From Legionella steigerwaltii (GTDB lineage Bacteria; Pseudomonadota; Gammaproteobacteria; Legionellales; Legionellaceae), in the NCBI RefSeq assembly GCF_001468065.1, contig NZ_LNYZ01000013.1:177450-241449 (forward strand): DNA of 64,000 nt, given 5' to 3'. The notes under the pieces were generated by a model. The model had not been told where the DNA came from. It saw only the letters and a list, made by a program, of their open reading frames with translations, and did no database searches. Shown in pieces: positions 1-46,090 of this stretch (position 1 is its first letter; the number at the start of each line of letters is the position of its first letter). The translations under genes were made by a program, and so were the position numbers.

Positions 1-178
1 ATAATGGGGGAGGTGGACGTCGAGCAAGTAGCCCCATTACAAGAAATATGACAAAGATAACAAGAAATAAAAAGAATAAAATTTTCGCAATTCCTGCTGC
101 CGCTACTGCAATTCCACCAAAACCAAATGCTGCAGCAATGATTGCAATAATAAAAAATATGAGGGCCCAATATAACAT
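1..178 (-). CDS. DUF1328 small membrane protein, C-terminus cut by window edge
   Basis: Reading leftward from an ATG at 178 gives a protein beginning [20 protein letters not shown], rich in Gly and Ala, then a second hydrophobic stretch ending in [10 protein letters not shown]. This matches the DUF1328 (YtjA-like) family of ~55-residue inner-membrane proteins. No stop is reached before the edge, so only a few residues can be missing. A GGAGG ribosome binding site lies just upstream of the ATG. Function in the family is not established; members are often stress-associated. The reading frame and family look clear. Confidence 0.8.
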
Positions 179-14374: not shown

Positions 14375-15511
14375 TTAGTTGTGATACATGGTCTCATGCA
14401 AGCTAAATAAGCGAACTTCTACAATATCAGATTGTAGTTTTAATGCTAAAATCACTCGGTCGTGCAATTCTTGCCATTTAGTGAATGTTTCATCACAGAC
14501 TATATCGATCCCTATCGTTCCATCCAGATAATGTAAATTCCAAAATAGAATTTGAGGAAAATCAATATGGACCTCATTTGAAAGCAGTTCGTGTAAAACC
14601 TTTCGGCTGGGTAAATGCAAAGAAGGACAAGAACGCTCGTCATCCTCAGGATCAACATGGACAATCACATCATTCACACTTTCTATTTGATCAGTAAGCG
14701 CATGGTGTACGTGTTGTGCAATATAATGTCCTTCAGATACCGATATCTTAGGTGAAACTAAAATATGTACATCAATTAATACATTTTCCCCCATAGAGCG
14801 ACTTCGTAATTGATGAATTTTTTCAACCCCATCCACATTTTGGATTACTTCTTCAATTCGAGTTAATAATTCCGGGCTGACTGCAGTGTCTACCAACTCT
14901 TTAACACTATTCCAGGCATAATCCCAACCCATCTTAACAATCATCAAACCAACTATAATCGCAGCGGCAGCGTCAAGATAACTATAACCTACAATGCTGC
15001 CAATTAAACCAACTAATACTACAAGAGAAGAGGCTGCGTCCGAACGATGATGCCAAGCGTTGGCAGTAATCAATTTAGAATTAATGCGTTTACCAATATA
15101 CAATGTATAGTGAAATAAAATTTCATTGCTCATGATGGAAATGCAAATGATTGGAAGTGTTAACCAATCTGGCATGCGATAATTAGAATGCAGCAAGTCA
15201 TATATTGAATCCCAGGCGATACCAATACCCGCAAAAATAAGTAATAGAGATAACAATAAGGTCGCAGCTGTTTCGATACGTTGATGCCCATAAGGATGAC
15301 TGGCGTCGGCATCAAGACTTCCGTATTTAGAAGCAAATAATACCATGGCGTCTGTTATGAGATCCGATAGGGAGTGAACCCCATCTGCAACAAGAGCGTG
15401 AGAATGAAAAAAGTATCCGCCGATGAGTTTTATGATGCCCAATAGTGCATTTGAAACAGCACCCAAAAGGGTTACTTTTTTTGCTTGCCAGTATCTGTCG
15501 TGTTGGGTCAT
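14375..15511 (-). CDS. Cation diffusion facilitator transporter, FieF-like
   Basis: The 378-residue product has six membrane segments followed by a cytoplasmic dimerisation domain (from about residue 210). Metal-site motifs are ADGVHSLSDLITD in segment 2 and HHRSDAASSL in segment 5, with HPYGHQRIE between them. CDF proteins export Zn2+, Fe2+ or other divalent cations by proton antiport. It is longer than E. coli FieF (300), with an extra ~80-residue C-terminal extension. Likely faces the ZIP importer functionally. Confidence 0.9.
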   Translation of the reverse strand: MTQHDRYWQAKKVTLLGAVSNALLGIIKLIGGYFFHSHALVADGVHSLSDLITDAMVLFASKYGSLDADASHPYGHQRIETAATLLLSLLLIFAGIGIAWDSIYDLLHSNYRMPDWLTLPIICISIMSNEILFHYTLYIGKRINSKLITANAWHHRSDAASSLVVLVGLIGSIVGYSYLDAAAAIIVGLMIVKMGWDYAWNSVKELVDTAVSPELLTRIEEVIQNVDGVEKIHQLRSRSMGENVLIDVHILVSPKISVSEGHYIAQHVHHALTDQIESVNDVIVHVDPEDDERSCPSLHLPSRKVLHELLSNEVHIDFPQILFWNLHYLDGTIGIDIVCDETFTKWQELHDRVILALKLQSDIVEVRLFSLHETMYHN

Positions 15512-15645
15512 GTTGTTTTTTTAATTAATATGATCTAGGTAAGACGAAGTAAGAATTTGGTTTTTTAGAATCCCAATTTCAGTTGTCTATCGGGTCTATT
15601 TAAACATGCTTGAGAATTATTTTATACATTAAATTGAAATATATA

Positions 15646-15786
15646 GGGCCTGTTTACAATTCGCTAGGTTGAGCCCAAATGACATGATTTTAGAGCATCG
15701 AAACGCAGCATACACGAAGTATGTGAGTATTGGAGCGCATAAAATCATGTCATTTGGGCCAAGATAGTAGAATTGTAAACTGGCCC
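15646..15786. repeat. 141-bp imperfect inverted repeat, MITE-like
   Basis: Outer arms gggcctgtttacaattc (15646-15662) and gaattgtaaactggccc (15770-15786) pair; inner arms GCCCAAATGACATGATTTTA and its complement (ending 15759) also pair. Different in sequence from the REP copies. No flanking target duplication was confirmed. Confidence 0.8.
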
Positions 15787-15833
15787 TAATGTATTTTAAG
15801 ACTAGTGTAAATTTTATAACGGATTCCACAAGA

Positions 15834-16915
15834 TGTTACGCATCTTGTGCACAGGATTATCCACAGATTTTGTGGATAAATATTTTTTGGACATCAAGGG
15901 TTAATAAGAGATAAGTCTTTTAGAATAAGAGTTTTGAGAACTATAAAAAAGTCTGAGTTTTATTTACTTGATATGATTAGAAGAGTTATCCACAAGATAT
16001 GTTTTGAAAGAATAAGAAACGTGCCTGACTATCTTAACAAAGAAAAAAATTAAAAACAGTCTTGACTTGGTATTTTTTTAAAAAATTTTATCTCTTAATA
16101 AATAGAATATTAAGATGCTTAAAAAATTTCCTGATTTATGAACTAACTAAGAATTATAAATTAAGAAGTCGTTTAAACCCAAATCTCTGGAACACTTTGG
16201 AAAGTTATGAAGCAGATGCAAAACAGACTGATTTTACAAGGTGTTTTACATCATGTGCACAGGATTATCCACAGATTTTGTGGATAAATGATTTTTAGAT
16301 CATAAAAGAGCAACTAAGAAATAAGTCTTATGGAATAAGGGTTTTTGCGGTCTATAAAGCGGTTTGAGTTTTAATTAATCGATTTGATTAGGAAAGTTAT
16401 CCACAGGATTTATTTTGAAATAATAAGAAATGTGCCTAACTATCTTAACAAAGAAAAAAATAAAAAACAGTCTTGACTTGGGTATTTGTAAAAAGAAAAT
16501 TTTAGTGTTGCTCTCTTCATTTTTTAATGATTTAAATTTGGTCAAATATGTGCGAGATGAATAGAAAAATAAAATTGGAAGAAAACCCTACAGTCAAACT
16601 TTAGTAACACTTTGGAAAGTTCTGGAGCACGCCTCAATTGAGCTGATTTTATAAGGTGTTTTACATCATGTTCACAGAATTATCCACAGATTTTGTGGAT
16701 AAATATTTTTTTTACGATAGGGTATTGAATTATTGATAAGCCTTTTGTAATAAGGTTTTTTTGAGATGTTATGTAAGAATTTGATTTGGAATATAAAGCG
16801 GATTAAAAGAAGTTATCCACAATGGATGCTTTAAAGAATTAGAAGATCTGACCACCATATTAACAAAGAAAAAAATAAAAAACAGTCTTGACTTGAGTAT
16901 TTTTAAAAATATTTT
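15834..16915. repeat. Three tandem ~410-bp repeat units, AT-rich, non-coding
   Basis: Three diverged copies share, in order, a GTGCACAGG or equivalent, a pair of inverted DnaA boxes, a third DnaA box ~130 bases on, the phrase TATCTTAACAAAGAAAAAAA (or close), and CAGTCTTGACTTG followed by an A/T run. The first DnaA boxes are 408 and 415 bases apart; the CAGTCTTGACTTG cores are at 16057, 16468 and 16883 (411 and 415 apart). Units 2 and 3 also share an upstream AACACTTTGGAAAGTT segment missing in unit 1. No credible gene lies inside; the block ends at the recG stop codon. Confidence 0.9.
15857..16821. other. Cluster of nine perfect DnaA boxes (TTATCCACA)
   Basis: Forward boxes TTATCCACA at 15857, 15986, 16265, 16397, 16680 and 16813, and reverse boxes TGTGGATAA at 15871, 16279 and 16694. 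In each unit the first forward and reverse boxes face each other five bases apart, making TTATCCACAGATTTTGTGG followed by ATAA. All nine match the strongest E. coli consensus with no mismatch. With long A/T runs next to each unit this looks like a replication origin or a DnaA-titration locus of the datA kind. No dnaA, dnaN, rpmH or gyrB gene is nearby, so its role is open. Confidence 0.85.
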
Positions 16916-18987
16916 TATCCTTGCAAAAATTGCTCAAAATTACCGAACCACCGTTGAGTCAAATCGTAAGCAGTTTGCGGTGAGTCTTCTATAAGTTGTT
17001 TTGCAATAGGGGGTAAAAGAGGAAGTAGATCGCGATCCCGCTGAATATCAGCAATTTTAAATTGTCGATAACCGGTTTGCCTAATTCCCAGCACTTCACC
17101 TGCTCCTCTTAATTCCATGTCCTTCTCTGCAATAATGAATCCATCATTGGTTGCACGCATAATTTTTAATCGTTCCGTGCCTTGTTGTGAGAGAGGGGAT
17201 TGATAAAGCAAAATGCAATGAGACTGAGCACTACCTCTTCCTACACGGCCACGTAATTGATGGAGTTGGGATAAACCCAAACGTTCGGCATTTTCAATAA
17301 TCATCAGACTGGCATTTGGAACATCTACTCCAACTTCAATGACCGTTGTCGCTACGAGCAAATTGATTTCACCGCATTTAAAAGCAGCCATCGTCGCTTC
17401 TTTTTCTATGGGTTTCATCCGTCCATGAACAAGTCCTACGCGTGCACTCGGAAGTTGTTCTTGTAATGCACGTGCTGTTTCAGTAGCTGCCATACATTGT
17501 AATTTTTCTGATTCTTCAATAAGGGTACAAACCCAATAAATTTGTCGTCCACTCGCTATAGCAACTTCCAATCGTTCAATAACCGCTTCCCGCTTATTCT
17601 GGTTCAATACAGCCGTAGCAATGGGTATGCGTCCAGGAGGTAACTCATCGATAATCGAGACATCCAAATGGGCTAAGTGGGTCATCGATAATGTTCTTGG
17701 GATAGGAGTGGCGGTCATTAATAATTGATGCGGGATAAGTTGTTCTTGTTGTCCTTTTTGTTGCAAGAGCAATCGTTGCTCAACACCAAATCGATGTTGT
17801 TCATCAATAATGACTAAACCTAAACGAGCAAAATTAACGGCCTCTTGAAATAAGGCATGAGTACCAATAATCAACTGACAACTATGATCTGCAAGCGCAG
17901 CAAATGCACTGCGCCGTTCACTAAGTTTCATTTTTCCGCTTAGTCTTAATATTTTAATGCCTAAAGGTTCTAGCCAACGGATTAGATTGTTAGTATGTTG
18001 CTCGCTCAGTAAATCTGTTGGTGCCATAAAGGCAACTTGTTGTCCATTTGCAATCGCTTGTAATGCTGCAAGAGCAGCAATGATGGTTTTTCCTGCGCCC
18101 ACATCTCCTTGTACCAAGCGCAACATCGGTTTCGTTTGCATTAAATCTTGGCTGATTTCTTGTGCTACTCTTTGTTGTGCATTCGTGAGCTTAAATGGAA
18201 GTGAGTCTAAAAATCGTTGTGTTAAGTTTTGATCAGTAGGTAATGCGACGGCATGGAGTGCATTTCTTGATTTCCTTGCAAATTGCATGCTAAGGCGTTG
18301 CGCTAACAATTCATCGAAAACTAATCGTTTCAGTGCAGGATGTTGACCTTGTTCAAGAGATTGTACTGAGATATCTGGAGGGGGATTATGCAATAATTGA
18401 ATCGCCTCACCCAAAGCCAAAAAATTATAGGCTCGCAATTGCTCGTTACCCATCCATTCCAATTGTTGAAGTTCCTGTTCGCAACTTTTTAATGCGACAT
18501 TCACCAATTGTCTTAACCGCGTTTGTGTTAAACCTTGTGTACTTGGGTAAATTGGTGTGAGCGTTTCATTGACCTGGCATTCCTCTTCATGATCAAGTAA
18601 TTGATATTCAGGATGGGTCATGGTCAGAGTATTATTGAATTCGCGTACTTCACCAAAAGCATGAATCATTGTGCTGTTCTTTAGGTTATTGATTTGATTT
18701 TTATTAAAATGAAAAAACTGAAGTTTTATTATTCCTGTTTTATCTTCAACATAACAATGCAGCATTGCTCGTTTACCGGGTTTAATTTCTGTTTTACACA
18801 CGCGTCCAGCAATGACGCTCCAATCATTGGGTCGTAAATCTTGGATGGGTGTGACTCGGGTCCTGTCTTGGTAGCGATACGGCAAGTGGAACAGCAAATC
18901 ACGCACAGAATGGATGCCGCATTTAGAAAGTTTTGCTGCAAGCGTTGGTCCGATTCCGGTTAGCGATTCACATGGTTTAGATAACAC
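16915..18987 (-). CDS. recG: ATP-dependent DNA helicase RecG
   Basis: The 690-residue product has the full RecG layout: N-terminal wedge domain (OB fold, ~50-150), then superfamily-2 helicase motifs with Walker A GDVGAGKT (~295), DEQHRFG as motif II, TATPIPRTLSMT as motif III, and the RGRVGRG motif VI, followed by the GEVLGIRQTG C-terminal region. RecG reverses stalled forks and processes branched DNA. It is divergent from argS, and the triple DnaA-box repeat lies directly after its stop. Confidence 0.97.
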   Translation of the reverse strand: MLSKPCESLTGIGPTLAAKLSKCGIHSVRDLLFHLPYRYQDRTRVTPIQDLRPNDWSVIAGRVCKTEIKPGKRAMLHCYVEDKTGIIKLQFFHFNKNQINNLKNSTMIHAFGEVREFNNTLTMTHPEYQLLDHEEECQVNETLTPIYPSTQGLTQTRLRQLVNVALKSCEQELQQLEWMGNEQLRAYNFLALGEAIQLLHNPPPDISVQSLEQGQHPALKRLVFDELLAQRLSMQFARKSRNALHAVALPTDQNLTQRFLDSLPFKLTNAQQRVAQEISQDLMQTKPMLRLVQGDVGAGKTIIAALAALQAIANGQQVAFMAPTDLLSEQHTNNLIRWLEPLGIKILRLSGKMKLSERRSAFAALADHSCQLIIGTHALFQEAVNFARLGLVIIDEQHRFGVEQRLLLQQKGQQEQLIPHQLLMTATPIPRTLSMTHLAHLDVSIIDELPPGRIPIATAVLNQNKREAVIERLEVAIASGRQIYWVCTLIEESEKLQCMAATETARALQEQLPSARVGLVHGRMKPIEKEATMAAFKCGEINLLVATTVIEVGVDVPNASLMIIENAERLGLSQLHQLRGRVGRGSAQSHCILLYQSPLSQQGTERLKIMRATNDGFIIAEKDMELRGAGEVLGIRQTGYRQFKIADIQRDRDLLPLLPPIAKQLIEDSPQTAYDLTQRWFGNFEQFLQG

Positions 18988-30366: not shown

Positions 30367-30411
30367 TCTGGTCGTCCAGAATTGAAACCTTGATGGATGA
30401 GGTCGTCCTCA
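30367..30411 (-). promoter_or_regulatory. Guanidine-II (mini-ykkC) riboswitch upstream of sugE
   Basis: On the minus strand two short hairpins with identical ACGA loops, GAGG-ACGA-CCTC (30410-30399) and CTGG-ACGA-CCAG (30379-30368), are joined by a ~19-base linker and followed by the ribosome binding site and ATG of the exporter. Two ACGR-loop stems are the whole definition of mini-ykkC, the guanidine-II class, which binds free guanidinium and frees the ribosome binding site. The match in structure, loop and downstream gene is complete. Confidence 0.93.
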
Positions 30412-30418
30412 TTTATAC

Positions 30419-45983: not shown

Positions 45984-46090
45984 TGGGGACGGTCCGGGAC
46001 GGACCCCAATGTGTTTTGAACAAGTTGACTAATAATTAATGGGGTCCGTCCCGGACCGTCCCCAATGGGGTTCGTCCCGGACCGTCCCCA
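45984..46090. repeat. Inverted repeat, GGGGACGGTCCGGGACGG family, with extra arm
   Basis: TGGGGACGGTCCGGGACGG at the left; the right arm, its complement, appears twice in tandem (to ~46064 and 46090). The loop reads AATGTGTTTTGAACAAGTTG then ACTAATAATTA. Closely related copy at 49861-49930 shares the loop. Confidence 0.85.

What the first reader, a model, noticed from the sequence alone, without database searches (positions are those of the whole stretch)
15834..16915. Three ~410-bp tandem repeats with nine perfect DnaA boxes next to recG
Seen: forward TTATCCACA boxes at 15857, 15986, 16265, 16397, 16680, 16813 and reverse boxes at 15871, 16279, 16694. Every unit repeats the same three-box geometry and the CAGTCTTGACTTG plus A/T run. 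Known: such exact, dense boxes mark oriC, or DnaA-titration loci such as datA in E. coli, and AT-rich segments are where origins open. Inferred: this is an origin-like element, or a DnaA sink, expanded by duplication. No dnaA/dnaN/rpmH genes flank it, which makes a normal oriC less obvious. The block is non-coding and I know of no description of it.
Basis: partly seen in the sequence, partly recalled or inferred. Interest (0 to 1): 0.85.

Follow-up and report, generated by a model that had tools for sequence, protein, structure and literature searches.

The report
Triple DnaA-reset (DARS-like) array beside recG
Three related DNA blocks beside the recG gene of a Legionella species carry the same three-site arrangement that E. 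coli uses to recharge its replication-starting protein DnaA, so this looks like a replication-timing control element in several copies and not a second origin.

Summary
In detail: nine perfect TTATCCACA boxes in three units, 408 and 415 bp apart, lie between a CDF transporter gene and recG. The origin reading fails, and a decisive part was missed. Beside each inverted pair sits a weaker box: [III]-3 bp-[II]-5 bp-[inverted I]. That is, mirrored, the core of E. coli DARS1 and DARS2, which turn ADP-DnaA back into ATP-DnaA. Mismatches over the three boxes: window units 1, 2, 2; DARS1 2; DARS2 3; best place in E. coli datA region 6, oriC region 8; shuffles 6-9. The units sit at the recG 3' end in at least 36 of 45 congeneric genomes, 1-4 per genome, all 67 cores in one orientation. 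A second locus, beside rimI/rlmD, is in at least 29 of 45. In two sampled relatives GC skew flips at dnaA and opposite it, not at these units. A core match is in 232 of 369 Gammaproteobacteria, reversed pattern none; with a free gap, 84 of 92 matches have the 3-bp spacing. Best reading: a DARS-type element, tandemly amplified. Activity is untested.

The parts
15845..15879 (+). Unit 1 DARS-type core: box III 15845-15853 (TTGTGCACA), box II 15857-15865, inverted box I 15871-15879
15986..15994 (+). Unit 1 accessory perfect DnaA box, 106 bp after box I
16253..16287 (+). Unit 2 DARS-type core: box III 16253-16261 (ATGTGCACA), box II 16265-16273, inverted box I 16279-16287
16397..16405 (+). Unit 2 accessory perfect DnaA box, 109 bp after box I
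16668..16702 (+). Unit 3 DARS-type core: box III 16668-16676 (ATGTTCACA), box II 16680-16688, inverted box I 16694-16702
16813..16821 (+). Unit 3 accessory perfect DnaA box, 110 bp after box I
16028..16089 (+). Conserved A-tract plus CAGTCTTGACTTG module of unit 1 (copies at 16439-16500 and 16854-16915); role unknown
   Evidence: shared by both loci of the genus in the consensus
16915..18987 (-). recG, ATP-dependent DNA helicase RecG; its stop abuts unit 3
14375..15511 (-). CDF family cation transporter gene on the other side

Best explanation
The block is three tandem copies of a DARS-type (DnaA-reactivating) element. In each copy ADP-DnaA is expected to bind boxes I and II, which face each other, and box III beside box II. 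The forced head-to-head contact would make DnaA release ADP; free apo-DnaA would then take up ATP and become able to start replication at oriC. The accessory box about 107 bp away and the A-tract module may help assemble the complex or bind a DNA-bending protein; several copies would raise the gain. Shown here: the box arrangement, that it fits DARS and not E. coli oriC or datA, its fixed place across the genus, and that it is not at the skew-defined origin of the relatives sampled. Inferred from E. coli work: binding, ADP release, effect on initiation, role of copy number.
For: Same 14- and 12-bp offsets of the three boxes as in E. coli DARS1 and DARS2. Geometry score 1, 2, 2 in the window and 1 at the own second locus, against 2 and 3 for DARS1 and DARS2, 8 for the E. 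coli oriC region, 6 for the datA region, 7 for the own dnaA region, 6-9 in 100 shuffles, 5 for the best place in the rest of the window. Units collected without regard to box III have a box-like 9-mer (2 or fewer mismatches) at -12 in 116 of 173, at -13 in 0 and at -11 in 1. The recG locus is found in at least 36 of 45 congeneric genomes, all 67 cores in one orientation, last core 223-242 bp from the recG end in 32 of 34. Core match in 232 of 369 Gammaproteobacteria with no hit for the reversed pattern, and 84 of 92 free-gap matches have the 3-bp spacing. Hda, the opposing arm of the E. coli DnaA cycle, is encoded in the own genome; IHF is documented in L. pneumophila (PMC4273665, passages).
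Against: No biochemistry. Box III is weak in the window (1-2 mismatches; an E. coli DARS box III has 1). In one search other upstream offsets also reach up to 35 of 173 (at -23), so weak boxes are common there. The accessory box lies on the box I side, unlike E. coli DARS2. The neighbours differ from those of E. coli DARS1 and DARS2. IHF-like sites do not sit at one offset in both loci, and Fis sites were not tested. Degenerate cores occur as dispersed repeats in some relatives.
Confidence: 0.75

Rival explanations
1. DnaA titration locus (datA in its first sense): a cluster of strong boxes that soaks up DnaA once the locus is duplicated, and so delays initiation.
For: Twelve perfect boxes in the two own loci (9 + 3) out of 82 in the genome. 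Extra copies of strong boxes would titrate whatever else they do.
Against: Titration needs number, not geometry; yet the 5-bp and 3-bp spacings and a weak box III are kept, and 20 of 36 recG loci have a single unit. The E. coli datA region lacks the arrangement.
Confidence: 0.13
2. DnaA acts here as a transcription regulator of the CDF gene or of recG.
For: The array lies upstream of the CDF start.
Against: Distance from core to CDF varies from 173 to 4294 bp, while the recG side is fixed, and recG ends there. The other locus lies beside other genes, rimI and rlmD.
Confidence: 0.04
3. A replication origin, first or second.
For: Dense DnaA boxes next to A/T-rich DNA.
Against: Skew signs flip at dnaA and about half-way round in G009 and G062. 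In the own draft contig the samples 53 kb and 18 kb before and 17 kb after the array are all positive; the contig does change sign elsewhere, nearest between 210 and 245 kb. DARS cores are not in the E. coli oriC region or the own dnaA region.
Confidence: 0.02
4. A mobile or dispersed repeat that happens to carry DnaA boxes.
For: Of eight congeneric genomes searched with up to 3 mismatches, four (G011, G015, G031, G059) hold roughly 6 to 9 similar degenerate cores each (my count); two G059 copies share about 590 bp at 74% identity.
Against: The recG-side and rimI/rlmD-side units are at orthologous places in at least 36 and 29 of 45 genomes, at recG always in one orientation.
Confidence: 0.03

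Closest known systems
E. coli DARS1 (bioD-uvrB intergenic)
   Same: Three-box core with identical 5-bp and 3-bp spacers, boxes I and II inverted, box II the strongest; intergenic and far from oriC.
   Different: Single copy; box I is the imperfect one of the pair; no accessory box at the Legionella distance; other neighbours.
E. coli DARS2 (the 455-bp element, found here between rppH and mutH)
   Same: Same core geometry (3 mismatches); element of similar length to one Legionella unit; DARS2 has further boxes outside the core (PMC8682772, introduction).
   Different: Further boxes are on the box III side in E. coli and on the box I side in Legionella; IHF and Fis sites of DARS2 not established here.
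E. coli datA
   Same: Non-coding cluster of DnaA boxes that controls DnaA (PMC4585315, passages).
   Different: No place with the core geometry in the region (best 6 mismatches). By coordinates about 0.10 of the chromosome from oriC, the recG units 0.25-0.40 from dnaA.
Bacterial oriC
   Same: DnaA boxes plus A/T-rich DNA.
   Different: No dnaA neighbourhood, no skew minimum in the relatives sampled, no DARS core in the E. coli oriC region.

Membership tests
DARS (DnaA-reactivating sequence) | Core of three DnaA boxes, I and II inverted 5 bp apart, III 3 bp beyond II | tested here: met
   spacing control
DARS (DnaA-reactivating sequence) | Non-coding chromosomal site away from oriC, kept at a fixed place among relatives | tested here: met
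   0.25-0.40 of the chromosome from dnaA in nine genomes (arithmetic)
DARS (DnaA-reactivating sequence) | Speeds ADP release from DnaA and raises ATP-DnaA | not testable with these tools
   no biochemistry available
DARS (DnaA-reactivating sequence) | DARS2 subtype: IHF and Fis sites at set distances | tested here: inconclusive
   IHF-like sites (8 of 9 consensus positions, both strands) upstream of box III in 23 of 51 recG-locus and 25 of 28 second-locus units, shuffles 9% and 12%, but at differing offsets; Fis not tested
DARS (DnaA-reactivating sequence) | Same genomic neighbours as E. coli DARS1 or DARS2 (orthology, not needed for kind) | tested here: not met
   neighbours are recG/CDF and rimI/rlmD, not uvrB or mutH
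datA | Box cluster around an IHF site | not tested
   only the absence of the DARS geometry in the datA region was tested
datA | Close to oriC | tested here: not met
   0.25-0.40 of the chromosome from dnaA in nine genomes (arithmetic)
oriC | At a GC-skew minimum | tested here: not met
   two relatives sampled, and the own contig around the array
oriC | Next to dnaA or other oriC marker genes | tested here: not met
   dnaA on contig C5, array on C13; neighbours recG and CDF

The most novel reading that the evidence does not exclude
The DARS core is an ancestral control element of the Gammaproteobacteria, perhaps of further Pseudomonadota, present away from oriC in most lineages. Legionella keeps two fixed DARS loci, one mid-arm at recG and one mostly near the terminus beside rimI/rlmD-relA, and has turned the recG copy into a 1-4 unit tandem array: a dosage dial for recharging DnaA.
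Probability: 0.5. Interest if true: 0.75.

Novelty: new variant of a known kind. Interest (0 to 1): 0.62.

Why it matters
The passages I saw place the DARS2 core among gammaproteobacteria related to E. coli (PMC4245941), with a review adding E. coli-proximal beta- and gamma-proteobacteria (PMC5742627). If the same core works in Legionella and much of the class, the ADP-to-ATP reset of DnaA is a general mechanism and not an enteric speciality. The natural series of one to four tandem copies at one place allows a comparison of copy number with replication timing, and the spacing rule (3 bp and 5 bp) gives a simple way to find candidate sites in other genomes.

Tried and rejected
Origin: rejected by skew and the place of dnaA. 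RNA element: no Rfam match in the block. Plasmid relative: no match in 72,556 plasmid records. CDF regulation: rejected by the varying distance. Shared neighbours in the class: of 43 loci searched with recG, CDF, aceF, lpd, rimI, rlmD, relA and six E. coli DARS neighbours, one hit, relA in a Legionellaceae contig (the stretches are mostly 3 kb, and the ptsP piece may have been translated out of frame). IHF sites: suggestive only. Concerted evolution: inconclusive; within-genome identity 0.844 over 49 pairs, between-genome 0.809 over 1032, nearest unit of 47: 19 own genome, 9 same index, 19 other index. One search used a pattern one base too long and found nothing; one search used the right one.

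Limits. The class pattern leaves the first base of box I (as read on the other strand) free because DARS1 differs there, so its exact match to DARS1 is no independent evidence. Skew was sampled, not computed over whole chromosomes. The 36 and 29 of 45 are lower bounds: only stretches around core matches were fetched, and I did not look up recG or rlmD in the remaining genomes. Of those 29, rlmD was seen in 23; in the other six only rimI. One search dropped one of 174 distinct units, too near a contig end. One search lists only part of its matches. oriC need not adjoin dnaA in this class, so distance from dnaA is an imperfect measure outside Legionella.

Full report
What is there. The window (G000:C13:177450-241449) holds, between a CDF transporter gene (14375-15511, -) and recG (16915-18987, -; names), three diverged tandem units 408 and 415 bp apart. 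The genome has 82 exact TTATCCACA in 3.95 Mb; nine in 965 bp is far beyond chance.

E. [quoted passage not shown] I took both loci from K-12 MG1655. In each, box II starts 14 bp after box I and box III 12 bp after box II. The window's units show the mirror image with the same offsets: TTGTGCACA-gga-TTATCCACA-gattt-TGTGGATAA and two like it. Over the 27 box positions the units have 1, 2 and 2 mismatches to TT[AT]TNCACA and the own second locus 1; DARS1 has 2, DARS2 3. The best place in the E. coli oriC region has 8, in the datA region 6, in the own dnaA region 7, in the rest of the window 5, and 100 shuffles of window 15001-17000 give 6-9. That the fetched stretch beside glyVXY contains datA is recalled.

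Box III was not used to find the units. Units were collected by the three perfect boxes alone. Among 173 distinct units in the fetched loci a box-like 9-mer (2 or fewer mismatches) lies at -12 in 116, at -13 in 0, at -11 in 1; other upstream offsets reach 35 at most (at -23). Units from Ktedonobacteria and other distant bacteria in that listing largely lack it and serve as an internal contrast.

The genus. The window's species was not identified. The three-perfect-box geometry is in 40 of 45 congeneric genomes; of the other five, four hold a no-mismatch core (G015, G031, G057, G064) and one, G030, 81% complete, none. Locus A, at the recG 3' end, was found in 36 of 45: 20 with one unit, 4 with two, 9 with three, 3 with four. 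All 67 cores point the same way. The last core lies 223-242 bp from the recG end in 32 of the 34 loci where recG is in the stretch, 268 and 1189 bp in the other two; the CDF gene lies 173-4294 bp away. Locus B, beside rimI and, where seen, rlmD-relA, was found in 29 of 45 (my tally over; rlmD seen in 23), with two units in G010, G013 and G022 and one in the others; 24 genomes have both loci. The accessory box is present, mostly 106-111 bp after box I, in 54 of 55 recG-locus and 28 of 28 second-locus cores counted.

Position. In G009 the ten GC-skew samples from 0 to 1.8 Mb are positive or zero and the ten from 2.0 to 3.8 Mb negative, with dnaA at base 367. In G062 the eleven samples to 2.05 Mb are positive, the next eight negative, the last (3.9 Mb) slightly positive, dnaA at base 373. 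By arithmetic, locus A lies 0.25-0.40 of the chromosome from dnaA in nine genomes with one chromosome-sized contig (G001, G006, G009, G011, G018, G019, G059, G062, G065); locus B lies 0.445-0.484 away, near the terminus, in seven of eight, and at 0.245 in G019. In the own contig the samples around the array (140, 175 and 210 kb; array at 193 kb) are all positive; the contig changes sign elsewhere, nearest between 210 and 245 kb. So the array is not at the origin of the relatives sampled. DARS2 and DARS1 of E. coli lie about 0.21 and 0.33 from oriC (coordinates).

The class. The pattern CACA-N3-TTATCCACA-N6-GTGGATAA with at most one mismatch is in 232 of 369 Gammaproteobacteria, the reversed pattern in none. 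With a free gap of 0-14 in place of N3 and no mismatch, 60 of 151 genomes match, with 92 matches, 84 of them with gap 3 (my count; 4 of the 84 are the own genome's; 5 of the 8 others share their inverted pair with a gap-3 match). In a sample of the phylum 52 of 150 match: 21 of 37 of the same class and 31 of 113 of other classes (my count). In six genomes of other families with one large contig (G054, G124, G150, G176, G328, G401) both listed cores lie at least 115 kb from dnaA. In 22 of 32 class loci examined, one core each, a further perfect box in the same orientation lies 186-194 bp on the box III side (my count). Legionella has its accessory box on the box I side; E. coli DARS2 has a perfect box at a like distance on the box III side but in the opposite orientation.

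How it probably works. In E. coli head-to-head contact of ADP-DnaA on boxes I and II drives ADP release, and apo-DnaA leaves and takes ATP (PMC8682772; PMC5742627, passages). DARS2 also needs IHF and Fis (PMC4245941, passages). The same core predicts the same act here. Hda, the opposing arm, is encoded in the own genome. IHF is documented in L. pneumophila (PMC4273665, passages). IHF-like sites upstream of box III are more frequent than in shuffles but differ in offset between and within loci, so DARS2-type regulation stays open. The conserved A-tract module with CAGTCTTGACTTG is shared by both loci and unexplained.

In print. The listings for Legionella + oriC + DnaA box (2 papers), Legionella + DnaA + replication initiation + origin of replication (11) and DnaA-reactivating + Legionella (0) show no description of this element; searches for DARS in other groups listed mainly E. 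coli and general replication papers. Kasho 2014 (PMC4245941, passage) says the DARS2 core is conserved among gammaproteobacteria related to E. coli. Subscription journals are mostly not held, so a wider survey may exist.

Against the reading. No biochemical data; box III at locus A is weak; neighbours and accessory boxes differ from E. coli; degenerate dispersed cores exist in some relatives; titration by the same boxes could act in parallel and cannot be separated by sequence alone.

Noticed in passing
window 15644-15788: A 145-bp element with long inverted ends (MITE-like) sits between the CDF gene and the array; similar copies (83-89%) occur in three of the sampled own stretches (L320, L321, L329) and in G033 (L218).
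   Followed up: partly
window 30367-30414 (-): Guanidine-II riboswitch (Rfam) before an ORF on the same strand that looks like a small multidrug-resistance-type membrane protein (the likeness is recalled, no family search run).
   Followed up: no
G059 (L307, L314), also G015, G031, G011: Dispersed repeats with degenerate DARS-like cores, roughly 6-9 per genome by my count; two G059 copies share about 590 bp at 74% identity. Nature unknown.
   Followed up: partly
Class loci L003, L004, L269-L298: In 22 of 32 a further perfect DnaA box in the same orientation lies 186-194 bp on the box III side of the core, an architecture unlike that of Legionella.
   Followed up: partly
G000:C29:24894-24923 and G000:C38:2345-2374: Two further one-mismatch core matches in the own genome, outside the two loci described.
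   Followed up: no
window 46038-46090: Two tandem 26-bp GC-rich units.
   Followed up: no
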